The notes below the pieces were generated by a model. That model searched no databases. It had not been told where the DNA came from and worked only from the letters and a program-made list of their open reading frames with translations. A stretch of DNA of 64,000 bases, taken from positions 62,001 through 126,000 of the forward strand of contig NC_014761.1 in NCBI RefSeq assembly GCF_000183745.1. Reading direction: 5' to 3'. The position numbers and the translations under genes were made by a program. Numbering within the stretch: the stretch's first letter is position 1; every line of letters starts with the position of its first letter. Positions 15,859 through 26,960 of this stretch are shown here, piece after piece. The DNA comes from Oceanithermus profundus DSM 14977 (GTDB lineage Bacteria; Deinococcota; Deinococci; Deinococcales; Marinithermaceae).

Positions 15859-17661
15859 ATGGAACTCCGCAACCTTGCCATCATTGCCCACGTCGACCAC
15901 GGGAAGACCACCCTGGTCGACGCGATGCTGAAACAGGCCCACGCGCTGGAGCGGGGCCACGAAGACGACGAGCTGATCATGGACACCGGCGAGCTCGAGC
16001 GCGAGCGCGGGATCACCATCCTGGCCAAGAACACCGCCGTGGTCTGGAACGGCGTCAAGATCAACATCGTCGACACCCCCGGCCACGCCGACTTCGGCGG
16101 CGAGGTCGAGCGGGCCCTCTCGATGGTCGACGGCGTGCTGCTTCTGGTCGACGCCGCCGAGGGGCCCATGCCGCAGACGCGGTTCGTGCTGCAGAAGGCG
16201 CTCGAGGCCGGCCTTTTGCCCATCGTGGTGCTCAACAAGGTCGACAAGCCCGAGGCCCGGCCCGAAGAGGTGTTGAACGAGACCTTCGACCTGATGGTCG
16301 AGCTGGGGGCGAGCGACGAGCAGGCCAATTTTCCCTACCTCTACGCCATCGGCCGCGAGGGCCAGGCCTGGCGCGAGGGCGAAAAGCCCGAAGACCTCAC
16401 CCCGCTTTTCGAGACCATCCTGGAACACATCCCCGAGCCGCGGGTGGAGGAAGGCCCCTTTCAGCTCAGGGTGGCCAACCTGGACTACTCCAGCTACCTG
16501 GGCAAGATCGCCATCGGCAAGGTGCACCGGGGCACGGTCAGCAAGGGCGAGACGGTGGTCATCGTGGGCGCGGCCGGCGAGCCGCGCAAGGTCAAGGTGA
16601 CCGCCGCCTTCACCCACCAGGGCCTCAGCCGCCTGGAGACGACCGAGGTCCTGACCGGCGACATCGTGGCGCTGGCGGGCATGGAGGGGGTGCAGATCGG
16701 CGACACCGTCACCCACAAACTCCACCCCGAGCCGCTGCCGCGGCTGGTCGTCGACGAGCCGACGGTGGCCATCACCCTGACCCCCAACACCTCGCCCTTC
16801 GCCGGCCGCGAGGGCAAGTACGTGACCAGCCGCCAGATCGCCGAGCGGCTCTACCGCGAGCTGGAGACCAACGTCGCCCTGCGGCTGGTCGAGCCCCGCC
16901 CCGACACCTTCGAGCTGCACGGCCGCGGCGAGATGCACCTGGCGATCCTCTTCGAACAGATGCGGCGCGAGGGCTACGAGTTCACCGTCGGCCAGCCGCA
17001 GGTGCTCTTCAAGTACGAGGACGGCCAGAAGCTGGAGCCCTACGAGTACCTGGTCGTCGACGTGCCCGAGGCCAAGTTCGGCGGGGTGATGGAGAACCTG
17101 GGCCAGCGCAAGGCCGAGATGCAGCAGATGGAGCCCGCGGGCGGCCGCATCCGCGCCGAGTACGTGGTGCCGGCGCGGGCGCTGTTCGGCTTCCGCAGCC
17201 AGCTGCTCAGCCTGACCGGCGGCGAGGGCCTGATGAGCCACACCTTCCACGGCTACGGCCCCTACGCCGGCGAGCTCAAGACCCGCACCACCGGAAGCGC
17301 GGTCTCGATGGAGAACGGGGTGGCCTTCGCCTACTCACTGTTCAAGCTGCAAGAGCGGGTGACCTTCTTCATCGAGCCCGGGACCGAGGTCTACGTGGGG
17401 ATGATCGTGGGCGAGAACGCCCGCGAGGGCGACATGAACGTCAACGTGACCAAGAACAAGAAGCTCACCAACGTCCGCGCCGCCGGCTCCGACGAGAACA
17501 TCAAGCTGATCCCGCCGCGCAAGATGACGCTGGAGGAGGCGCTCGAGTTCCTGGCCCCCGATGAGCTGCTCGAAGTCACGCCCAAGAGCCTGCGCTTGCG
17601 CAAGGCCATTCTCGACCCCGGCCAGCGGAAGCGGGTGGAGCGGGGGAAGGAGCCGCGGTGA
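15859..17661 (+). CDS. typA: Ribosome-associated GTPase TypA/BipA
   Basis: A 600-residue translational GTPase: G1 AHVDHGKTT, switch region ERERGITI, G3 DTPGHADFGG, G4 NKVDKPEAR. Elongation-factor-like domains II, III and V follow, then the BipA-specific C-terminal domain (LFKLQERVTFFIEPGTEVYVG, NKKLTNVRAAGSDENI). Length is normal for the family. BipA binds 70S ribosomes and helps large-subunit assembly and stress adaptation. It is the last core gene before the compositional change to the defence island at 17825. Confidence 0.95.
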   Translation: MELRNLAIIAHVDHGKTTLVDAMLKQAHALERGHEDDELIMDTGELERERGITILAKNTAVVWNGVKINIVDTPGHADFGGEVERALSMVDGVLLLVDAAEGPMPQTRFVLQKALEAGLLPIVVLNKVDKPEARPEEVLNETFDLMVELGASDEQANFPYLYAIGREGQAWREGEKPEDLTPLFETILEHIPEPRVEEGPFQLRVANLDYSSYLGKIAIGKVHRGTVSKGETVVIVGAAGEPRKVKVTAAFTHQGLSRLETTEVLTGDIVALAGMEGVQIGDTVTHKLHPEPLPRLVVDEPTVAITLTPNTSPFAGREGKYVTSRQIAERLYRELETNVALRLVEPRPDTFELHGRGEMHLAILFEQMRREGYEFTVGQPQVLFKYEDGQKLEPYEYLVVDVPEAKFGGVMENLGQRKAEMQQMEPAGGRIRAEYVVPARALFGFRSQLLSLTGGEGLMSHTFHGYGPYAGELKTRTTGSAVSMENGVAFAYSLFKLQERVTFFIEPGTEVYVGMIVGENAREGDMNVNVTKNKKLTNVRAAGSDENIKLIPPRKMTLEEALEFLAPDELLEVTPKSLRLRKAILDPGQRKRVERGKEPR

Positions 17662-17798
17662 CCATTTTGCTTTTTCGCACCAAGGCTTAGATACTTCAAA
17701 ATACATACCCGCTGGCTGTTTGCGGTGCCCGCAGGCTTGGAGCAAGCGCCCTTATGGAGTGCGGCAGTGCAAAGCCCGAATTGCCCGTTTCGTGTGCT

Positions 17799-17804
17799 TA
17801 TACT
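17799..17804 (+). promoter_or_regulatory. Putative -10 box of the defence operon
   Basis: TATACT lies 20 bp upstream of the methyltransferase start. GAAGG (17809-17813) and GAGG (17819-17822) are possible ribosome binding sites. No good -35 box at normal spacing is seen. The surrounding 160 bp after typA hold no gene. Confidence 0.5.
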
Positions 17805-17824
17805 AAAAGAAGGTTTCTGAGGTT

Positions 17825-18793
17825 ATGAGAGTCATTGACCTTTACGCCGGGATGGGTGGAATCTCGTGGGGATTCTCGCAAGAGGGTTTTCATGTTACAG
17901 GGCTGGACATCAATCCCCTTTCCCCGGACATCTTTGAGTTAAACGGCATTGGCAAGGTTATCGTCACCGACCTCCGAGATTATCAGATTCAGAACCTAGT
18001 CCCCCGGGTACGGGAAGAGCCATTGGTGTTGGTGGGGGGGCCTTCCTGCCGACCGTGGAGTAACGTGAATCGCCGCCGCCACCTTTTTGGGCCGGCACAC
18101 CCGGATTACGTGTTAATGATTAAATTCCTGAATGCCGTGACGGCCCTCAAGCCAGAAGTGTTCTTGATGGAAAACGTTCTGCCTATAGCCAGCGACCCTG
18201 GCTTTCGGAAAAAGATCACCTCTCTGAAGCGGCATTACTGGGTTGAGGAGACCCGGGTCCGGTATTCGGAGTATGGAGCCCCCACCTCGCGGGTACGCTT
18301 CTTTGCGGTCGGTTTCCGCCGGGGGAAGCGGGTGAACCACGCCCGGAGCTTTTTAAGGAAACTCGATGAAGAGCGCCGCCGTTCCCGACCAAGAACAGCA
18401 GGGGACGTTCTTGCTGATTACGTAAGGCTGGGATATGGGGAGGCGCCTGATCATCACTGGCCTAACTTTAGAACCATCAACCGGTACGAGGACAAGTACC
18501 GCTCAAATAGATATGGCTGGTACAGGCTTGATCCCGAAAAACCTGCGCCCTCTTTCGGGAATGTGATGAAAACCTATACCCTCCCCCCCTGGGTCGGGAA
18601 CGGCCACGGGGTCCCCCTGCGCGTTATTTCTGTCAGGGAGGCCATGGCCCTGATAGGGTTTGACCGCACCTTTAGATTCCCTGAGGGGGCTTCCATGAAA
18701 ACTCGCTATCAGATGGTTGCGGACGCCGTAAGTCCCGTGTTTTCAAGGATTGCTGCGCGCGCTATACGTGAAATCCTCGAGGAAGAGATGTGA
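17825..18793 (+). CDS. DNA (cytosine-5)-methyltransferase, DrmMII-like
   Basis: A 322-residue C5-cytosine methyltransferase. Motif I is DLYAGMGGISWGF (AdoMet site). Motif IV is GGPSCRPWS with catalytic Cys75. Motif VI is MENV (Glu116), motif VIII is GAPTSRVRFFAVG with Thr replacing the usual Gln, motif IX is REAMALIGF and motif X is QMVADAVSP. The target-recognition region between VIII and IX is short. It overlaps the glycosylase gene by four bases (GTGA), so translation is coupled. As first gene of the operon it probably marks self DNA, as DrmMII does in class 2 DISARM. The recognition sequence cannot be read from the gene. Confidence 0.9.
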   Translation: MRVIDLYAGMGGISWGFSQEGFHVTGLDINPLSPDIFELNGIGKVIVTDLRDYQIQNLVPRVREEPLVLVGGPSCRPWSNVNRRRHLFGPAHPDYVLMIKFLNAVTALKPEVFLMENVLPIASDPGFRKKITSLKRHYWVEETRVRYSEYGAPTSRVRFFAVGFRRGKRVNHARSFLRKLDEERRRSRPRTAGDVLADYVRLGYGEAPDHHWPNFRTINRYEDKYRSNRYGWYRLDPEKPAPSFGNVMKTYTLPPWVGNGHGVPLRVISVREAMALIGFDRTFRFPEGASMKTRYQMVADAVSPVFSRIAARAIREILEEEM

Positions 18794-19455
18794 ACACTGC
18801 CGTTGTGGAAGTTAGAGGTCGCGAGATAACCAACGCACTGCTGCGCTGGGGGGAGAAAAACCTGCGCGATTTTCCATGGCGCGGAACGCGTGACCCTTAC
18901 CGTATCTTCGTGGCGGAATTCTTGCTTCAGCGTACCCGGGCGGAGCAGGTGGTTCCAGCGTACGAAGAGTTGGTGCGTAAATACCCGGGGTTTGAGGAAC
19001 TTGCCGGGGCGGACCCGTCCGGGTTGCTGGAAATCATACGCCCCCTAGGTCTGCACCGGAGGGCAAATTTACTGCAAAATGCAGCACGAATAATTAAGGA
19101 GCAATTCGGCGGCCTGTTGCCCCCTTCAATGAAAGAGCTAACCTCGATCGAGGGGGTGGGCACCTACACCGCCGCTGCCATTCTTGCGGCACTGTATGAC
19201 CTTCCTGCACCTGCTGTAGACACAAACACTCTTCGCGTGCTCGGAAGGGTGTTCGGCCTAGAGATTAAGGAGTCATCGCGAAAGAAGCGTGAGTACCGTG
19301 ATCTGATAGAGTCGTTGGTTCCGAAGGGGCAGGCGCGTCTTTATATATACGCTCTGCTGGATCTGGCGGCGACGGTCTGCACACCCCGGAATCCGGCGTG
19401 CGACAGGTGCCCCCTGATCCGTATATGTCATAAGGGAGGCGGAAATGGGCTTTAG
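18790..19455 (+). CDS. Mig-type G:T mismatch DNA glycosylase (HhH-GPD, 4Fe-4S)
   Basis: A 221-residue HhH-GPD glycosylase. FPWRGTRDPYRIFVAEFLLQ is the MutY/Mig N-terminal signature. The helix-hairpin-helix reads IEGVGTYTAAA with Tyr126 at the position of EndoIII Lys120, and the catalytic Asp144 lies in AVDTNTLRV. Both match the catalytic pair known from archaeal Mig thymine-DNA glycosylase, also 221 residues long. Cys197, 204, 207 and 213 form C-x6-C-x2-C-x5-C for a 4Fe-4S cluster. It has no MutY C-terminal domain. Coupled to a 5mC methyltransferase, it most likely removes T from G:T pairs made when 5-methylcytosine deaminates, which is fast in thermophiles. The gene ends inside drmA (11-bp overlap). 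Confidence 0.85.
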   Translation: MNTAVVEVRGREITNALLRWGEKNLRDFPWRGTRDPYRIFVAEFLLQRTRAEQVVPAYEELVRKYPGFEELAGADPSGLLEIIRPLGLHRRANLLQNAARIIKEQFGGLLPPSMKELTSIEGVGTYTAAAILAALYDLPAPAVDTNTLRVLGRVFGLEIKESSRKKREYRDLIESLVPKGQARLYIYALLDLAATVCTPRNPACDRCPLIRICHKGGGNGL

Positions 19456-22400
19456 AAAAATGCTTGTTGAAGATCTTGTCCGCCAGGTTCTCGGCCCGCT
19501 AGACGGTCCGGAGGAGAAGATTGATGCGGAACTTGCGAGTCCGCTGAACCTGTATTTAACGGGGGTGCTGGAGCCTCCGGAATCCTGGGACAGGCAGGGG
19601 CCGGCGGATCCGGATTCCGAGGCCGTCAGGCTTGAGGGTGAGCAGGGCACCTCGGAAGAAGACCAAGAAGACGGAGAGGTCGCTCCTCCACCTGTGCCTC
19701 TTCCCGCCCTGCACCCGGCAAGCCGCCCTTCCGTTTTTGGTATTGCCTTCGAACTGGAGGTTCCGGATGGAAAGCAACCGGAGATCGAAGTTTTGCTGAC
19801 CTGGGGGCGTTACCTCCTTCATGAAGGAAGTGGGGCGGGAAAGGTATGGCAGCGATACCCGAACTACCGGCATATCGAGCGTCTCACTCTCGATCAAAAT
19901 CGCCTCTTCGATGCGGGAGATTTGCAACTTCATGTTCGGGTGAAAAATGCCGGCGGCCGTGTCCGGGCTTTTATTCAGGTCCGGGTGGTGGTAAAGGAGG
20001 AGGGCGAAATCGAGGAACGGTGCGTCTTCCAGCCCTCCTTGCGTATTCGCGTTCTCGAAGGTGTATTGATTCCATTAGGAAACGCCAATCAGGCTCCTGT
20101 TTCAGAGGACGAGCAGGCCATGCTGGATTTCGGTTACCGCAATCTACCGGTTCTTGCTCGCGGCCTGCTATGTTCGGCAACCTGGAAAGAGGTTGATCCC
20201 GAACGGGAAGCGCCGGGTGGCGAGCAATGGATGGCTACTTGGGCCGATGCATATGCCCTGTCCCCGGATTTATTAGAGCGATTCACGGCACCGGACTTAC
20301 GTACCGAATTCATCCCCATGTACGCGCTGTCTGCCCCGGACTGGACATGGGTAGGCGGTGATCCGGAGCCGGAGTTCGACCCGAAAACCCTTTCATCAAG
20401 CGCGGATCCGGACAGGATCGCCCATCACCTGGAGCCGCTAGTGCGCGGGTTCCGGGACTGGATAGAGAAACAGGAATCCGCCGCGAGGAATCTAAAAGGC
20501 AACGCCGTTAAGCGTATTATAAAAGAATTACATGACACTTTAAAGCGGATGGAGCGCGGTCTCGAGTTACTGCACGACGAAATGGATGCGCGCATGGCCT
20601 TTGCCTTTGCCAACCGTGCGCTCTGGCTACAGGCTCGTTGGGACAGCCGCGAATTCACGTGGAGACCGTTCCAGCTGGCCTTTCTGCTTGCCGCGATAGA
20701 ATCGGCTGCCCGGCCAGACTCGCCCGATCGCGACGTTTGCGACGTGCTCTGGGTCCCCACAGGCGGGGGGAAAACTGAGGCGTATCTTGCGCTGGTAGCC
20801 TTCGTGCTTGCCTACCGCCGGCGGATTCACGGGAGGAATGGAAAGTGCGGTTCTGGCGGGGGGACCGCCGTAATCTCCCGCTACACGCTCAGACTTCTCA
20901 CGCTCCAGCAGTTTCGCCGGGCACTCAAGGTTATCACCTCCTGCGAGTACCTCAGGGTGCTGCGGGATCCCGGGGCGGGGAAGCCGGGGTGGAGGCCGGA
21001 AGGGGCTCCTGACGAAGACTTCCCGTGGGGCACGGAACGGTTCTCCGCCGGTATCTGGGTTGGCGGGGCCATCACACCGAATAAACTTAAGGGAACCTGG
21101 AACAACGAGGCACAGCGCAGCATTCCCGGCGCACTGGATGTCCTTGCGGGAAAGGCTAGCGGAGGGGGCGAGCCAGCTCAGGTCACTGGCTGTCCCGCCT
21201 GCGGGGCACTCTTGGCTGTGCCATCGGGCGGGTTAGGACCAGGTGAACACTTGCTACACCTCGTAGTACGCCGGGAGAAGGGGACGGAGGATGGTGGCCC
21301 CGGAGAGGGTTGGCTGCTGGGGAACCCGGACGGATTCAAAGCGTCGATCCTGGATGTTACACCTCTTCCCTCAGGGTTTGAAATTCTGACGGTGCACATT
21401 GAAACGGACCGGGCCCTGACCCGGCAGGACATCGACAGCTGGTGGAAATCGGGGCCAGCTTACGCATATGATCTTGCGCCTTTCGCGGCTTCTCGACCGG
21501 GCTATTTTCCCCGTTACCGGCGAGGCAAGGAGGGCCCTCAGCTCGAGGACTTCGAGATCTGGTGCCCCTCCCCTACCTGCCCTCTGGGCGAAATCGGGGA
21601 GGGGGGGATCTGGTGGGAAACGGCCCCTCGGGATGACCTCGATTTCCACGTAAACGGGACAACAGGCTCTGGCGGTAACCCAAGGCTGAATGGGGTTGGA
21701 AACGTTCATCCAGAAACGGGGACTCCTTTGCGCTGTGTGTTCAGGCGTGTCATTGATCCGTGGGTCGCTCCCAACACAAACAGTCTCGGCGCCGTTCGCA
21801 TTCCCATACCCGCCCTAACCGTTGACGATCAAGTCTATGCGCACCCCCCTTCACTTTTGGTGGGCACGGTAGACAAGTTTGCCCGGATGGCATACGAGCC
21901 CAAAACCTCCCATTTGTTTGGAAAAGTCAATTTTTATCACCCGTGGTCCGGCTACCAGGGCCCGGCAACGCGTCAAGATAACATATATAAGCTTGGGGAT
22001 GCCTGCGAACCGCTACCCCCACCTGAACTTATCCTCCAAGACGAGCTGCATCTGGTGGAGGGGCCCCTTGGAAGCCTTGTGGGCCTGTACGAAACCGCTG
22101 TCGAAAACCTCATCGCTGAGGACTTTGAAGGTTTCCAACCAAAGTATGTCGCGTCCTCGGCCACCATCCGGGAAGCGGGCAGTCAGGTAAAGGCCGTTTT
22201 CGACCGCCGTATCGCGCTCTTTCCCCCTCCCGGGTTTGACGCGAACGATCGATTCTTCGTTCGTGGGGGTGAGGCGCACCCGCTCTATGAGTCCCGTCCA
22301 GGACAGCTTTACGTGGGTATTGCAGCACCCGGCGCGGGGACGCTCAAGCCAATTTATCGGGTATGGGCCGTGCTTTTGCAGGCTGTTTGGAACGGCAGGG

Positions 22401-23311
22401 AGGACGGCGATTACAAGTATTTTCATACTCTTGTCGGCTACTTTAACGCGATTCGCGAGCTTGCCGGCGGAAGGGCCCTCACGCGCCAGGACATTCCGGA
22501 GCATCTGCAGTTTCTGGAACAACTTACCAGCACAAAAGCTAGACCGTTTTATTCCGAGTCAATTGAAGAGCTTTCCGGGCGGATCGATTCAACGGACCTT
22601 CCCGACATTCTCGACCGTCTCGCGGGAGAATCCGAGCGGCCGGACGCATTGCTTACAACCTCCATGTTCGGAACGGGTATTGACCTGCCCCAGCTTTCGC
22701 TCATGGTCATTCACGGACAGCCCAAAACCACTGCTTCCTACATTCAGGCGGCAGGCCGCGTAGGAAGAAATCGAGCAGGCCTGGTGGTGTCTCTTCTCCG
22801 CCCGAGCCGTCCCCGGGACCTCAGCCATTACGAGTTCTTCGTGGGTTACCACAGGCAGGTCTACCGCCACGTGGAGCCCATCACGGTAATGCCCTTTGCG
22901 CCCGCGGCGCTGCATCGGGCAGCCGGGCCCGTGATGGTGGCCATGCTCAGGAACGGCTCCAACACGGCAGCGGACTGGGGGCCTGATTCCGGGGCCACGG
23001 CCATTGCTGCTAGCAGGAGTTCCGCCTATTTAACCGCAATCGTTGAAGCCCTGCGAGGTCGCGGCCGGCGCCAACCGACAGCGCGCCGCCCGGACTCAGA
23101 GAGGGTGGAGGAATTGCTAAATTCCGGACTGGATCGCTGGCAGCAAATCGCGAAGCGCCGTCAAGATCTCGTTTATGTTGAATACGGAAAGGCGGAAAAA
23201 CCAGTCGTCCTCGGTGACCCCCTGCACAGGCGGGAGGGGCTGCCAGTTGTTTTCGAAAATGCGCCCCAGTCGCTCAGGGATATAGAGGAAACTATCGGGA
23301 TCGAGTATTGA
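19445..23311 (+). CDS. drmA: DrmA-like superfamily 2 helicase
   Basis: A 1288-residue helicase. Motif I is WVPTGGGKTEAYL near residue 440, motif II is DELH near 866, motif III is SSATI near 902, and motifs V-VI are TSMFGTGIDLPQ and QAAGRVGRNRAG near 1070-1105. About 420 residues lie between motifs I and II and carry Cys pairs (CPACGALL near 582, CPSPTCPLG near 708) that may bind zinc. Residues 1-400 are unlike known nucleases. Length, motif spelling and the DrmB gene 13 bp downstream identify it as DrmA, the DISARM helicase. It starts inside the glycosylase gene with GGGAGG upstream. It probably unwinds or translocates on incoming DNA together with DrmB. Confidence 0.85.
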   Translation: MGFRKMLVEDLVRQVLGPLDGPEEKIDAELASPLNLYLTGVLEPPESWDRQGPADPDSEAVRLEGEQGTSEEDQEDGEVAPPPVPLPALHPASRPSVFGIAFELEVPDGKQPEIEVLLTWGRYLLHEGSGAGKVWQRYPNYRHIERLTLDQNRLFDAGDLQLHVRVKNAGGRVRAFIQVRVVVKEEGEIEERCVFQPSLRIRVLEGVLIPLGNANQAPVSEDEQAMLDFGYRNLPVLARGLLCSATWKEVDPEREAPGGEQWMATWADAYALSPDLLERFTAPDLRTEFIPMYALSAPDWTWVGGDPEPEFDPKTLSSSADPDRIAHHLEPLVRGFRDWIEKQESAARNLKGNAVKRIIKELHDTLKRMERGLELLHDEMDARMAFAFANRALWLQARWDSREFTWRPFQLAFLLAAIESAARPDSPDRDVCDVLWVPTGGGKTEAYLALVAFVLAYRRRIHGRNGKCGSGGGTAVISRYTLRLLTLQQFRRALKVITSCEYLRVLRDPGAGKPGWRPEGAPDEDFPWGTERFSAGIWVGGAITPNKLKGTWNNEAQRSIPGALDVLAGKASGGGEPAQVTGCPACGALLAVPSGGLGPGEHLLHLVVRREKGTEDGGPGEGWLLGNPDGFKASILDVTPLPSGFEILTVHIETDRALTRQDIDSWWKSGPAYAYDLAPFAASRPGYFPRYRRGKEGPQLEDFEIWCPSPTCPLGEIGEGGIWWETAPRDDLDFHVNGTTGSGGNPRLNGVGNVHPETGTPLRCVFRRVIDPWVAPNTNSLGAVRIPIPALTVDDQVYAHPPSLLVGTVDKFARMAYEPKTSHLFGKVNFYHPWSGYQGPATRQDNIYKLGDACEPLPPPELILQDELHLVEGPLGSLVGLYETAVENLIAEDFEGFQPKYVASSATIREAGSQVKAVFDRRIALFPPPGFDANDRFFVRGGEAHPLYESRPGQLYVGIAAPGAGTLKPIYRVWAVLLQAVWNGREDGDYKYFHTLVGYFNAIRELAGGRALTRQDIPEHLQFLEQLTSTKARPFYSESIEELSGRIDSTDLPDILDRLAGESERPDALLTTSMFGTGIDLPQLSLMVIHGQPKTTASYIQAAGRVGRNRAGLVVSLLRPSRPRDLSHYEFFVGYHRQVYRHVEPITVMPFAPAALHRAAGPVMVAMLRNGSNTAADWGPDSGATAIAASRSSAYLTAIVEALRGRGRRQPTARRPDSERVEELLNSGLDRWQQIAKRRQDLVYVEYGKAEKPVVLGDPLHRREGLPVVFENAPQSLRDIEETIGIEY

Positions 23312-23324
23312 GGGGTTTCATGCT

Positions 23325-25199
23325 ATGAGCAGAAAGAAGCAGAACGTTCGCCTTTCGAATTTCATTCTACAGCTGGGACCCGGAGCGATTGTCGAGACTC
23401 CGGGGGGTCCCCGGATCGTGCTATCGACCGATACCGGCCTGTTCCAGGGGGGGATAAATCCCCATGAGTTAGAGGTTGAGGTTCCTTACGTCGGCACCGG
23501 CTCTGATGCGGAAACGCCTGCCGCAGCCTTCCTTCTCCCCCCCGAAGCCGCATGGAAAACGCAATCGTTTCCAGTATGGAAGCTCTGTACCGAACACTGG
23601 ATCCTTCATGCCCGGGGCTGTCCGGAATGTACACAGGAACAGCGTGCGGGTTCCCGGGAGCAGGCCATCCGCTTTGTCATGGCGTGCCCCGCGGGGCATC
23701 TGGATGAAGTTCACTGGTCCCGCCTCGTTCACGGACGCTCCTGGCCCCACGACGAAGTTCAGGAATACTATCGCTGGGAACATCGCGGGTCGCGCCTTGC
23801 ACAAACCTACGTCGTATGCCCGGTTTGCGGCAAGGAGGCACCGCTCTCCAGGGCCTATTACGGCGAGCACGAATGTACCGGAAGGTTTCCGGAAAATGAG
23901 GAACCCGGGGCGGGGGCCGTAAGACCGCGCAACTGCGATCAGAAAATGCGCATGATTCAACGCCAGGCCGTTAACCTTCGCATTCCAGAGGTGCAGACCT
24001 TCCTTACAGTCCCCCCTATGGAAGCGGGCGAATACCGGATGCTCCAGCTAGAGAAGGATGAACTCATACACACGCTCAGAGTGGCGGGTTTGCTCAGGGG
24101 AGCGCAGGAAAAGCTACAAGTAACCAGGGAAAACGGGCTGCCCGCTCCTGCGCCTGAGGAGGGTGAGAGGCTGCAGGAAGTCTTCGAAATGTTTCTGGAG
24201 AGAGCAGAATCTACGCGCCGGGGTTGGGACCTTGAGGACCTGAGGAAGCTGGCTGAAGATCCCGGTGCACTGGCTGGTGCGATTGAGCGCGTTCTAGGCT
24301 ACCACCGCCCGTCCAGCCCGCAGGATGCCTGGCAGAATGAGTTTCGCAAACTGCTACGTGGTATGGACGAGGGAATTCCACCACTCCAGAGGAAACGTGG
24401 AGCCCGCTCCGGGGCCACAACGCTTATCGAGATGGATCCGTCTGGGGTCAGGAGGGAGATTCCAGGTCCGGGCGGGGTCGGGTTTGTCGTTGCCCCCTTG
24501 CAACGGCTTCACACGGTAACGGTGCAAATAGGCTACCGCCGGGCCGTAGGGAGCACCGGAGACCCCTCGGGGGTGGTCGGAGAACTGGTGGACATGGGTG
24601 CTATGTGGCCGCCCGGCGCGGACGGTGAAAAAAAGTGGTACCCAGCCTATGAAAGTCTTGGGGAGGGCCTGTTCATCACGACGGATAAAGCCTTAATATT
24701 TCAAAATCAGCGCTGGGCAAAATGGATGGAGCTTTTCAAAGAAGCGCTGAAACAATCGGGAAACGTTCTGGATCAGGATGTGCACCGCTTTCACCCAGTT
24801 TTTGTGTGGTGGCATACTTTTTCACACTTGCTCCTTAGAGTACTCGCCGTTGACTCCGGCTACAGCCTGGCTTCTATAAGCGAGAGGATCTACCTGGATT
24901 TTGATGCCTTGAGCGAGAATCCGGAACAGGTTCGTGGCGCCATACTTCTTTACACAACCAGCTCGGGGACGGACGGAACCCTCGGCGGACTCATTGCCCT
25001 GGCAGATAAAATTAAAGAACTTATAGAAAAAGCGGTGGCCGGGGCTGAGGTGTGTTCTTCCGACCCATTGTGCTGGGAAAATGAGTTTCACTCCGAGAGC
25101 CCGATCGGTGCAGCATGCTACGCTTGTCTTCTTGTTTCCGAAACCAGCTGTCGCCATCGAAACCTTTGGCTGGATAGAAGATTATTGTTAGAAAAATAG
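23325..25199 (+). CDS. drmB: DrmB (DUF1998) protein
   Basis: A 624-residue DUF1998 protein. The N terminus, NVRLSNFILQLGPGAIVET, is typical of DrmB. Cys/His clusters follow: CTEHWILHARGCPEC near residue 90, CPAGHLDEVHW near 120, CPVCGKE near 165 and CxxxxCDQK near 205. The C-terminal DUF1998 block reads WWHTFSHLLLRVLAVDSGYS, LYTTSSGTDGTLGGLI and ACYACLLVSETSCRHRNLWLDR. DrmB forms a complex with DrmA in DISARM. Only 3 bp separate it from the next gene. Codon use includes ATA, AGA and TTA more often than in neighbouring core genes. Confidence 0.87.
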   Translation: MSRKKQNVRLSNFILQLGPGAIVETPGGPRIVLSTDTGLFQGGINPHELEVEVPYVGTGSDAETPAAAFLLPPEAAWKTQSFPVWKLCTEHWILHARGCPECTQEQRAGSREQAIRFVMACPAGHLDEVHWSRLVHGRSWPHDEVQEYYRWEHRGSRLAQTYVVCPVCGKEAPLSRAYYGEHECTGRFPENEEPGAGAVRPRNCDQKMRMIQRQAVNLRIPEVQTFLTVPPMEAGEYRMLQLEKDELIHTLRVAGLLRGAQEKLQVTRENGLPAPAPEEGERLQEVFEMFLERAESTRRGWDLEDLRKLAEDPGALAGAIERVLGYHRPSSPQDAWQNEFRKLLRGMDEGIPPLQRKRGARSGATTLIEMDPSGVRREIPGPGGVGFVVAPLQRLHTVTVQIGYRRAVGSTGDPSGVVGELVDMGAMWPPGADGEKKWYPAYESLGEGLFITTDKALIFQNQRWAKWMELFKEALKQSGNVLDQDVHRFHPVFVWWHTFSHLLLRVLAVDSGYSLASISERIYLDFDALSENPEQVRGAILLYTTSSGTDGTLGGLIALADKIKELIEKAVAGAEVCSSDPLCWENEFHSESPIGAACYACLLVSETSCRHRNLWLDRRLLLEK

Positions 25200-25202
25200 A
25201 AT

Positions 25203-25688
25203 ATGCCTGTTAAGAGTTTGCTTGCCACCGGAGAGGCGCTTGTTGGTAACGGCATGCGGTCCTTTGATTCTTCTATCCGGGAGGTTCTCGGGCTCCCAAT
25301 TAAGGAAATCCAAATTGTTTCTTACGGATTCGACCGTTCATTTGGTCCGGTTTTAGAAGGCTTACTGTTCAAGAATTACCGGGCAGGCGCCAGAATGACC
25401 GTGATTACCCGTCCCCCCCGAGAGCACGAGCCCGGGGTTCGCCAAACGCTCATGGTTTTGGAAGAAGAAGGGGTTCTGGTTCAGGCTCCCTCTGAATGCG
25501 GTGGATTGTTGCATATTAAAGCACTCGTGGTCAATCGGGAACATGCCATTCTTGGCTCGGCCAACTTCACATATGGTGGCTTAACAGTCAATCACGAGCT
25601 AGGTGTGTGGCTTACGGGAAAAGAGGCATGGGAAATTGGGAAAACAGTTGATAGACTCGAAGGTTATCTTAAAAAATGCCAAAAATAA
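25203..25688 (+). CDS. drmC: DrmC-like phospholipase D-family protein, short
   Basis: A 161-residue protein with one PLD motif: His104-x-Lys106, then Asn111 where Asp is usual, then GSAN (118-121), in GLLHIKALVVNREHAILGSA. Standard DrmC proteins are larger, about 230-250 residues, so the N-terminal part is reduced. A single HKD motif implies dimerisation if it is active; Asp to Asn may lower activity. It is the last gene of the operon. In DISARM, DrmC is the accessory nuclease and is dispensable in some tests. The gene is more AT-rich than those before it. Confidence 0.75.
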   Translation: MPVKSLLATGEALVGNGMRSFDSSIREVLGLPIKEIQIVSYGFDRSFGPVLEGLLFKNYRAGARMTVITRPPREHEPGVRQTLMVLEEEGVLVQAPSECGGLLHIKALVVNREHAILGSANFTYGGLTVNHELGVWLTGKEAWEIGKTVDRLEGYLKKCQK

Positions 25689-26149
25689 CTACCTATTGTA
25701 ATTATGATAATTAATAAATTTATGGCCAACCTTTACCAACATGGATGTTTTATTTATTCCTCAACCTAAACTGTCAAATCAAAAGTGGAAAATTTGTCAG
25801 TGAACGACACTAGCACAAGGCCCTTTGCCTATCAACCTTTGCCAACTGGGGTAGAGATTGCATATTTTGCCCTTCCAGCCAAGAGTGCGGGCACCCTCTA
25901 GCCTAAGCCTGCGCAGCGTCCAAAACCCCATGATCCAACTGCCGCAAATATACCCTTAGGTGGGAGTCTGGTGGGGGTTGGTGGAGGTGCAAGGCTTATA
26001 ATCGACCTTCCCAGCCAGCTTTTCGTGCCCCTACCCGGCCAAATATTTCCCTTGTTTAGCGGTCGTGCCGCGCCTCCCCACAACTTCTCGCCCAACATCT
26101 AAGTCAAGGCTCGGCAGTTATTTGTAGACAAGGACGAAACACTAGTCAA
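25689..26149. other. AT-rich gene-free tail of the island
   Basis: No credible coding region was found on either strand. The first 130 bp are the most AT-rich in the window; composition then rises gradually. An inverted repeat sits at 25771-25800. I see no tRNA end, integrase gene or direct repeat that would mark an attachment site. Confidence 0.6.
25771..25800. repeat. Imperfect inverted repeat
   Basis: CTGTCAAAT (25771-25779) and ATTTGTCAG (25792-25800) pair at eight of nine positions around a 12-base loop. It may be an operator, a weak hairpin or the trace of a transposon end. It is followed by no T-run. Confidence 0.4.
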
Positions 26150-26800
26150 CTACGTAGTCGCAACTTCTTCCCCATCCTCCGGCACGGCGAAGCGTCCGGG
26201 GCAGGCGGCGGCGGTCTGGGCGTCGTCCATCAGGATGAGCTCCCGCCCCTCGCCCCAAACGGCGCCGCCGGAATGGGTGACGACCACGTCGGGCGCGAGC
26301 GGGGCCGCGGCCGCCGCGAGCTCGGGGTACCAGACGGTGTCGCCGGCCAAATATATGCTCGGCTCGCCCGGCGCGCGCAGGAGGTAGCCCGCAACCGGTC
26401 CCATGTCGGCCAGCACCTCCGGGCTCGAGCCGTGCCGGGCGGGCAGCCGGATCGCTTCCAGCCCCTGCCAACTCGCGGAGTCTTCGAGCGCCAGAACGCC
26501 CTCGAAGCCCCACGCCCTCAGCCGCGGCGCGTCCTCCGGCTGGGCCAGAACGGGCAGCTCGCGCGGCAGCAGCTCGCGCGCGGTCCTGTCGAAGTGATCG
26601 CCGTGCAGGTGCGAAACAATCACCCCCTCCACCCCGGCCAGCACCTCTTCGGGGGGCAGCGGCAGGTCGGCCAGCGGGTTGGTGGCGACGCCGGCGTACG
26701 AGGGCAGGCTGCCCGCGAGCCCCAGCATGGGGTCGTAGAGCAGGGTCTTTCCGGCGAGCGTGAGGCGCAGGGTGGCGTTGCGGATCAGCTGGAGCTGCAT
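26150..26800 (-). CDS. MBL-fold metallohydrolase, probable internal deletion
   Basis: From ATG 26800 the product has 216 residues; TAGACT (26811-26806) lies five bases before it. The zinc motif SHLHGDHFD (HxHxDH) and AGDTVWYPEL identify an UlaG-like MBL-fold protein. Homologues I know continue after the MDAEQT segment with about 35 residues containing a VAVHMEALxHC-type metal-binding stretch before a closing PEDGE motif. Here MDDAQTAAACPGRF leads straight to VPEDGEE. This looks like an in-frame deletion that removes a metal ligand, next to the island boundary. It may therefore be inactive. Confidence 0.72.
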   Translation of the reverse strand: MQLQLIRNATLRLTLAGKTLLYDPMLGLAGSLPSYAGVATNPLADLPLPPEEVLAGVEGVIVSHLHGDHFDRTARELLPRELPVLAQPEDAPRLRAWGFEGVLALEDSASWQGLEAIRLPARHGSSPEVLADMGPVAGYLLRAPGEPSIYLAGDTVWYPELAAAAAPLAPDVVVTHSGGAVWGEGRELILMDDAQTAAACPGRFAVPEDGEEVATT

Positions 26801-26960
26801 GCTCCAGTCTAGCCCGGCCACAGGGGCCCACACACAAACCGGGCCGGCGTGGTCGTTCGGGCAGGCGAGCGCTTCGCCAGCGGCGGGGCCGGGGCAAAGA
26901 GAAAGCCTGGCGGACGAACGCCCTTGGCGCCCGCTACGCTTCGGTTCGCGCTGCGCGCCC

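What the first reader, a model, noticed from the sequence alone, without database searches (positions are those of the whole stretch)
17825..25688. Compact DISARM-type defence operon with an unusual gene set
Five tightly spaced or overlapping genes on one strand encode a C5 methyltransferase, an HhH-GPD glycosylase, a DrmA-like helicase, DrmB (DUF1998) and a DrmC-like PLD protein. DrmA, DrmB and DrmC are the DISARM core and a 5mC methylase marks class 2. There is no drmE, drmD or drmMI nearby, and the methylase comes first instead of last. The operon differs in base composition from both flanks. I infer a reduced, thermophile-adapted DISARM variant.
Basis: partly seen in the sequence, partly recalled or inferred. 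Interest (0 to 1): 0.9.

Follow-up and report, generated by a model that had tools for sequence, protein, structure and literature searches.

The report
Anti-phage operon with built-in DNA repair
A heat-loving deep-sea bacterium carries a compact version of the known DISARM anti-virus system that includes, next to its DNA-marking enzyme, a repair enzyme of the kind thought to fix the mutations such marks cause in hot cells.

Summary
The five genes are real, intact and where stated. Profiles assign four to DISARM: DrmMII, DrmA, DrmB and a short DrmC. A DrmE model finds nothing in the whole genome and no DrmD reaches its cut-off, so the locus fails PADLOC's type II definition although its methylase is type II-like. 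The same five genes in the same order occur in two other genomes of the order. Those two copies share 95% DNA identity over 7,822 bp ending within 20 bases of the operon's ends, with no match outside in the stretches held: the five genes move as one unit. The new part is gene 2: neither the cell's MutY nor its endonuclease III, but a Mig.MthI-type glycosylase by residues and tree (MutY clade 99/96). Such glycosylases sit beside C5 methylases in 11 of 13 loci fetched, MutY in 0 of 12. Best reading: a minimal DISARM in which DrmMII marks self and the glycosylase repairs T:G mismatches left when 5mC deaminates. Substrate, methylation and phage defence are inferred, not shown.

The parts
17825..18793 (+). 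drmMII-like C5-cytosine DNA methyltransferase, 322 aa; the only PF00145 match in the genome
   Evidence: PADLOC DrmMII PDLC02655 657.7 bits; PF00145 101.3 bits; genome-wide search. Catalytic Cys kept in motif IV, written PSC here and PPC in the two relatives
18790..19455 (+). HhH-GPD DNA glycosylase of the Mig.MthI (T:G mismatch) type, 221 aa, GTG start, Fe-S motif, no C-terminal 8-oxoG domain
   Evidence: PF00730 and PF10576; PDB 1kea E 1.6e-40 and MutY E 3.5e-44; residues E43, A51, Y126, D144, Y187; tree
19445..23311 (+). drmA, SF2 (YprA-family) helicase, 1288 aa, helicase motifs intact
   Evidence: PADLOC PDLC02571 1629.9 bits; NF038326 DrmAL 1637.1 bits, cut-off 999; solved DrmA 7s9v; motifs
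23325..25199 (+). drmB, DUF1998/MZB zinc-binding partner of DrmA, 624 aa
   Evidence: PADLOC PDLC02583 686.4 bits; NF038324 420.6 bits, cut-off 240; solved DrmB 7s9v chain B
25203..25688 (+). short drmC-like single-HKD PLD nuclease, 161 aa; matches only positions 80-223 of the 236-position DrmC model, so it lacks the N-terminal third
   Evidence: PADLOC PDLC02614 157.1 bits; PF13091 41.6 bits; NF038319 41.1 bits, below its cut-off of 133; HxK and GSxN kept, the Asp between them is Asn
17660..26954 (.). segment of O. profundus replaced by 2,904 bp of other DNA in the same-genus genome G001
   Evidence: blastn: 92.5% identity ends at 17659 and 94.6% identity resumes at 26955

Best explanation
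A minimal DISARM-type defence operon. DrmMII methylates cytosine at its motif in host DNA. The DrmA-DrmB helicase loads on invading DNA with unmodified single-stranded ends and blocks or unwinds it, with the small PLD protein DrmC as candidate nuclease. The embedded glycosylase is a dedicated T:G (and U:G) mismatch glycosylase, the thermophile counterpart of Vsr beside Dcm: it removes the thymine made when 5mC deaminates, so that base excision repair restores C:G and the self-marked sites are kept. Shown here: gene content, intact motifs, conserved order, co-transfer as a block, glycosylase type by residues and tree, absence of DrmE. Inferred from families and literature: methylation, self-recognition, loading on ends, T:G excision, phage defence.
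For: Profiles: DrmMII, DrmA, DrmB and DrmC in PADLOC; DrmAL and DrmB_fam over curated cut-offs. DrmA and DrmB match the solved DISARM complex. The methylase and DrmA subfamilies are found in the same 3 genomes: 3 of 111 genomes of the order for PDLC02655 and 3 of 390 genomes for PDLC02571 at E<=1e-150; in each the glycosylase lies between them with an 11-bp overlap into drmA. Two copies share 95.0% DNA identity over 7,822 bp with no blastn match outside. Identity of all five proteins to the relatives is of one order, 44-59%. Glycosylase: in 12 MutY-type sequences V stands at the A50 site in 12 and Q at the L187 site in 11 (E in 1), whereas the operon copies have A and Y/L/L, with Y126 and D144 kept. 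A50 and L187 are the Mig.MthI residues whose change to V and Q shifts it from T:G to A:G (PMC2714593, passages). The MutY clade (99/96) leaves out the operon glycosylases, which form a clade of their own (97/96). The genome has a separate MutY-type and endonuclease III-type gene. C5 methylase near Mig-type genes 11 of 13, MutY 0 of 12, endonuclease III type 0 of 13. Mig.MthI itself lies near a C5 methylase and a restriction enzyme on pFV1. Optimum 60 C.
Against: By plain sequence score the glycosylase is slightly closer to MutY than to 1kea (154.6 and 142.7 bits), and its residue at the L187 site is Tyr, not Leu. EcMutY with V45A/Q182L gained no T:G activity, so the two residues do not prove specificity. 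Mig-type genes beside methylases also occur in haloarchaea, so they are not special to thermophiles. No methylome, activity or phage data. DrmC is short, scores below the NCBIfam cut-off and has Asn for the HKD Asp. The AlphaFold model of the glycosylase failed (mean pLDDT 37.6).
Confidence: 0.74

Rival explanations
1. The glycosylase is part of the attack, not of repair: it excises modified, deaminated or mismatched pyrimidines in phage DNA, making abasic sites or nicks on which DrmAB and DrmC act.
For: It is always inside the unit in the three bacterial copies and overlaps drmA. Base excision as defence exists: Brig1 and Brig3 excise glucosyl-5hmC or 5hmC (PMC11078745, PMC13160076, passages), and restriction glycosylases are known (PMC10273834, passages).
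Against: Brig1 and Brig3 belong to the uracil-glycosylase superfamily, not HhH-GPD. Mig-type genes recur next to C5 methylases where no DISARM gene is annotated, which fits a partner of the methylase. None of 7 other DISARM-like loci searched by BLAST has such an ORF (L035, L038-L043).
Confidence: 0.12
2. The glycosylase is an adenine glycosylase (MutY paralogue) carried by chance beside the methylase.
For: Best PDB scores are MutY; best NCBIfam model is mutY, 188 bits, but below its cut-off of 286.5.
Against: Residues and tree put it outside MutY; it lacks the C-terminal domain; the genome has a MutY-type gene elsewhere; position and order are conserved in three genomes.
Confidence: 0.08
3. 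A remnant: a decayed class 2 DISARM that has lost drmE and part of drmC and gives no defence.
For: DrmE absent, DrmC short; PADLOC's type II needs DrmE.
Against: All five frames are open, helicase and methylase motifs are intact, and the same set without DrmE is kept in two further genomes and moved recently as an intact block.
Confidence: 0.06

Closest known systems
DISARM class 2 (PADLOC type II: DrmA, DrmB, DrmC, DrmE, DrmMII)
   Same: DrmA, DrmB, DrmC and a DrmMII-type C5 methylase in one operon
   Different: No DrmE in the genome; extra HhH-GPD glycosylase; DrmC without its N-terminal third
DISARM class 1 (DrmA, DrmB, DrmC, DrmD, DrmMI), with the solved Serratia DrmAB
   Same: DrmA and DrmB related over long stretches to 7s9v
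   Different: No DrmD over its cut-off and no large adenine methylase gene in the operon; a class 1 operon with these genes is L035
Mig.MthI with its restriction-modification genes on plasmid pFV1 of Methanothermobacter
   Same: Mig-type glycosylase encoded near a C5 methylase; same diagnostic residues except Tyr for Leu187
   Different: There the partner is a restriction enzyme, here a DISARM helicase complex
Vsr with Dcm (very short patch repair)
   Same: A T:G-directed repair enzyme linked to a C5 methylase (recalled; a vsr gene and a C5 methylase follow a class 1 DISARM in Deinococcus sp. AJ005)
   Different: Glycosylase instead of an endonuclease; inside the operon, between methylase and helicase
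DISARM-like locus of a Thorarchaeota archaeon (L001)
   Same: Same DrmA subfamily, with DrmB, short DrmC, an HhH-GPD gene and a C5 methylase
   Different: Order A-B-C-X(469 aa, no family)-HhH-GPD-methylase; its HhH-GPD has the Lys of endonuclease III types, not the Mig residues

Membership tests
DISARM (core) | DrmA helicase | tested here: met
   1637.1 bits against NF038326, cut-off 999
DISARM (core) | DrmB (DUF1998/MZB) as a separate adjacent gene | tested here: met
   NF038324 420.6 bits, cut-off 240; next gene
DISARM (core) | DrmC PLD nuclease | tested here: inconclusive
   PADLOC DrmC 157.1 bits, but NCBIfam DrmC_I 41.1 bits, below cut-off 133, N-terminal third missing
DISARM (core) | restricts phages | not testable with these tools
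   needs an infection assay
DISARM type II (PADLOC) | DrmMII C5 methylase | tested here: met
   PDLC02655 657.7 bits
DISARM type II (PADLOC) | DrmE (required by the definition) | tested here: not met
   NF038316 DrmE_fam: 0 of 7 genomes incl. the 3 with the operon; of 14 control genomes 1 rang and none over the cut-off, so the positive control is weak
DISARM type I (PADLOC) | DrmD | tested here: not met
   best 376.8 bits in the own genome, cut-off 610; 2 other genomes of the 7 pass
DISARM type I (PADLOC) | DrmMI | not tested
   no genome-wide DrmMI search was run; none of the five operon genes is one
Mig.MthI-type T:G glycosylase | not V/Q at the A50/L187 sites; Y126 and D144 kept | tested here: met
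   A51, Y187, Y126, D144 in window numbering; Leu187 itself is not conserved
Mig.MthI-type T:G glycosylase | outside the MutY clade | tested here: met
   MutY clade 99/96 without it; the branching among Mig-type rows is largely unresolved
Mig.MthI-type T:G glycosylase | excises T opposite G | not testable with these tools
   needs an enzyme assay

The most novel reading that the evidence does not exclude
The glycosylase is a working component of the immune mechanism: it reads the chemical state of cytosine or uracil sites and turns deaminated, mismatched or modified pyrimidines in incoming or replicating phage DNA into abasic sites and nicks that load DrmAB-DrmC, so the operon couples methylation-based self-marking to base-excision restriction.
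Probability: 0.12. Interest if true: 0.85.

Novelty: new variant of a known kind. Interest (0 to 1): 0.55.

Why it matters
Systems that mark self with 5mC carry a mutational cost that should grow with temperature. An operon that packs marker, defender and a likely mismatch-repair enzyme into one mobile block would be a direct, testable answer to how such systems are tolerated in hot cells, and would show which proteins suffice for DISARM without DrmE or DrmD. It also offers thermostable DrmAB, DrmC and DrmMII for structural work.

Tried and rejected
Genome-wide collection scan with DrmA: 66 stretches matched patterns, 1 relative found (Thorarchaeota); the patterns lay in variable stretches, so this is no census. 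Scans of viral contigs with DrmA (2 stretches, none a relative) and with the methylase (no stretch) gave nothing; same limitation. AlphaFold on the glycosylase alone: mean pLDDT 37.6, unusable, no fold search made. Promoter and terminator scan: no promoter-like site on the + strand between typA and the methylase; terminator-like sites no more than in shuffles. Repeats at the island's ends: only short chance-level pairs. tRNA gene at the insertion site: none in 12000-40000. Idea that DISARM in general comes with a T:G repair gene: not supported. Of 11 plasmid DISARM-like loci fetched (L035, L094-L103) 5 have an annotated C5 methylase, 1 an annotated vsr, none a base-excision glycosylase; this rests on the product names of an incomplete gene table. 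Idea that the glycosylase is universal in this DrmA subfamily: not supported in archaea. Of 4 genomes with it among 227 of the archaeal phylum only L001 shows an HhH-GPD gene, of another type; L087, L088 and L089 show neither glycosylase nor methylase by BLAST, but two are short contigs. Temperature of the two bacterial relatives: not established; 16S G+C is 62.5% for the window's genome and 58.6% for G085, none was found for G093.

Full report
What is there. Five genes lie on the + strand at 17825-18793, 18790-19455, 19445-23311, 23325-25199 and 25203-25688, with junctions of -4, -11, +13 and +3 bp. The genome has 2,439,291 bases with a chromosome contig of 2,303,940, the figures printed for Oceanithermus profundus 506T, which grows best at 60 C (PMC3111992, passages). 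The operon has 57.4% G+C in a window otherwise at 70.5%; third-position G+C is 0.475-0.635 in the five genes and 0.960 in typA next to it.

Family assignment. PADLOC gives DrmMII 657.7 bits, DrmA 1629.9, DrmB 686.4 and DrmC 157.1. NCBIfam puts DrmA (1637.1, cut-off 999) and DrmB (420.6, cut-off 240) over curated cut-offs, but DrmC (41.1, cut-off 133) and the dcm model (77, cut-off 100.65) below. DrmA and DrmB match the two chains of the solved DISARM complex 7s9v. Helicase motifs, the methylase catalytic Cys and the HxK and GSxN of DrmC are kept; the methylase has PSC for PPC and DrmC has Asn for the HKD Asp. The DrmC protein matches only positions 80-223 of the 236-position model, so the N-terminal part is missing; Bell et al. 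describe a 4-helix bundle at the N-terminus of most DISARM PLD proteins (PMC12458937, abstract, outline, passages and figure legends). Near its N-terminus DrmA has a variable acidic stretch in all five homologues compared, which by position could play the part of the Serratia trigger loop (PMC9142583, passages); this is inference. The residue aligned with Serratia V1296, the base contact, is Ile here and Val in the two bacterial relatives.

Which DISARM. [quoted passage not shown] type I needs DrmD and DrmMI (PMC9252829, passages). A DrmE model finds nothing in 7 genomes searched, including all three that carry the five-gene operon; its control is weak, as 1 of 14 control genomes rang and none passed the cut-off. 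A DrmD model gives at best 376.8 bits in the own genome (cut-off 610), on another part of the chromosome, while 2 other genomes of the 7 pass. So it is DISARM by its core, type II-like by its methylase, and neither type by definition. The original DISARM paper (Ofir et al. 2018) is not held.

Conservation and mobility. Full-length DrmA of this subfamily (PDLC02571, E<=1e-150) is found in 3 of 390 genomes related to the window's, itself included, and in none of 5 same-genus genomes. The methylase subfamily (PDLC02655, E<=1e-50) is found in 3 of 111 genomes of the order, the same three. In all three the order is methylase, glycosylase, drmA, drmB, drmC, with the glycosylase overlapping drmA by 11 bp. 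The copies in G085 and G093, which belong to different genera of one family, are 95.0% identical over 7,822 bp, from within 20 bases of the operon's start to within 20 bases of its end, and blastn (E<=1e-5) finds no other match between the two stretches of 19,901 and 16,109 bp. A tyrosine recombinase gene follows the operon in G085. In the same-genus genome G001 the flanks align at 92.5% up to window 17659 and at 94.6% from 26955, and 2,904 bp of other DNA stand in place of 9,295 bp; there one ORF matches type IV restriction models. The operon is thus a recent cargo at a variable site behind typA, and the five genes are the unit that moves.

The glycosylase. It has the HhH-GPD domain and the Fe-S motif. 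Against PDB sequences it scores 154.6 bits to MutY and 142.7 to 1kea, the G-T mismatch enzyme of Methanothermobacter; that alone would favour MutY. The residues that set the two apart were compared in 40 sequences. MutY-type: 12 of 12 have Val at the A50 site and 11 of 12 Gln at the L187 site (one Glu). Mig-type: 14 rows, 13 Ala and 1 Ser at the first site; 9 Leu, 4 Trp and 1 Tyr at the second; the Tyr is this one. All 26 keep Y126 and D144. The other 14 rows, endonuclease III types and the Thorarchaeota gene, have Lys for Y126. Changing A50 and L187 of Mig.MthI to Val and Gln shifts it from T:G to A:G, but the reverse changes did not make E. coli MutY a thymine glycosylase (PMC2714593, passages), so the residues mark the type and do not prove activity. 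In the tree the 12 MutY-type rows form one side of a branch with 99/96 support and the three operon glycosylases group with 97/96; the rest of the Mig-type branching is mostly unresolved, several end branches are long, and the two diagnostic columns were left in. The own genome also has a MutY-type and an endonuclease III-type gene elsewhere, so the operon copy is a third, specialised one.

Company of Mig-type genes. By tblastn a C5 methylase lies in the fetched stretch of 11 of 13 Mig-type loci, 0 of 12 MutY-type and 0 of 13 endonuclease III-type loci. Two of the 11 are the DISARM copies; without them it is 9 of 11. The misses are Gloeothece (L052) and a Thorarchaeota gene (L058). The stretches were not equal: 10 Mig-type and 3 MutY-type loci had about 4 kb on each side (less at record ends), the rest 1.5 kb; and the Mig-type plasmid loci were picked from the top of hit lists. 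Among them are pFV1, where mig itself stands near a C5 methylase, a Caldicellulosiruptor plasmid, Thermus plasmids and haloarchaeal plasmids. The last show that the pairing is not limited to thermophiles. The genome's only C5 methylase is the one in this operon, so if the glycosylase serves a C5 methylase it serves this one.

How it most likely works. Established for DISARM: DrmAB is autoinhibited, loads on DNA with a 5' overhang and has its ATPase lowered by 5mC; DrmC is dispensable in tests (PMC9142583, passages). Inferred here: DrmMII marks the host, DrmAB attacks unmarked ends with DrmC as an aid, and the glycosylase removes T from T:G at deaminated 5mC so that repair restores the site. 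Mig.MthI is described as reducing deaminated bases from 5mC. Rivals are an attacking glycosylase, a MutY paralogue and a decayed system; see the fields above.

Other members of the DrmA subfamily. Thorarchaeota L001 has A-B-C-X-HhH-GPD-methylase; its HhH-GPD gene is of another type (Lys, no Glu at the E37 site). The other three archaeal genomes show no such gene in the stretches held. Among 7 DISARM-like loci of other subfamilies searched by BLAST (L035, L038-L043) none has a related glycosylase.

Novelty. PADLOC already holds DrmMII, DrmA, DrmB and DrmC models that fit these proteins closely, and it files its best glycosylase match as a type II nicking endonuclease (PDLC03398), not as DISARM; so the DISARM genes are catalogued and the glycosylase is not listed with them. 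I found no paper that joins DISARM with a mismatch glycosylase: searches (the last listed 15 of 102 papers), and 0 uses of 'glycosylase' in the YprA survey, which does mention many uncharacterised DISARM-like classes. Hence a new variant of a known kind. Interest 0.55: the anatomy and the block transfer are strong, the function is untested.

Noticed in passing
L092:12555-13325 (G001, same genus): At the site that holds the DISARM operon in O. profundus the sister genome has a Mrr-like ORF matching type IV, methyl-directed restriction models; such an enzyme could clash with a 5mC-writing operon.
   Followed up: partly
L093 (G003), after typA: A third gene set (transporter genes) follows typA in another same-genus genome, so the place behind typA is variable.
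   Followed up: partly
L033:3732-6651: Caldicellulosiruptor plasmid with a PLD-type restriction enzyme, a C5 methylase and a Mig-type glycosylase side by side.
   Followed up: partly
L049:2590-4645; L050:2590-4645: Thermus plasmids with a C5 methylase gene overlapping a Mig-type glycosylase annotated as hypothetical, and no DISARM gene annotated in the stretch.
   Followed up: partly
L001:16101-17510: 469-aa protein without any Pfam or PADLOC match between drmC and the HhH-GPD gene of the Thorarchaeota DISARM-like locus.
   Followed up: no
L087:6596-9637: 1,013-aa protein without family directly after drmC in another archaeal locus of the same DrmA subfamily.
   Followed up: no
G000:C2:2266769-2268850: SNF2-like helicase in the same genome, 376.8 bits to DrmD but below its cut-off; perhaps of another defence system.
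   Followed up: no
L035:14179-15870: Deinococcus plasmid with a class 1 DISARM followed by vsr and a C5 methylase, a possible mesophile parallel; 1 of 11 such plasmid loci looked at.
   Followed up: partly
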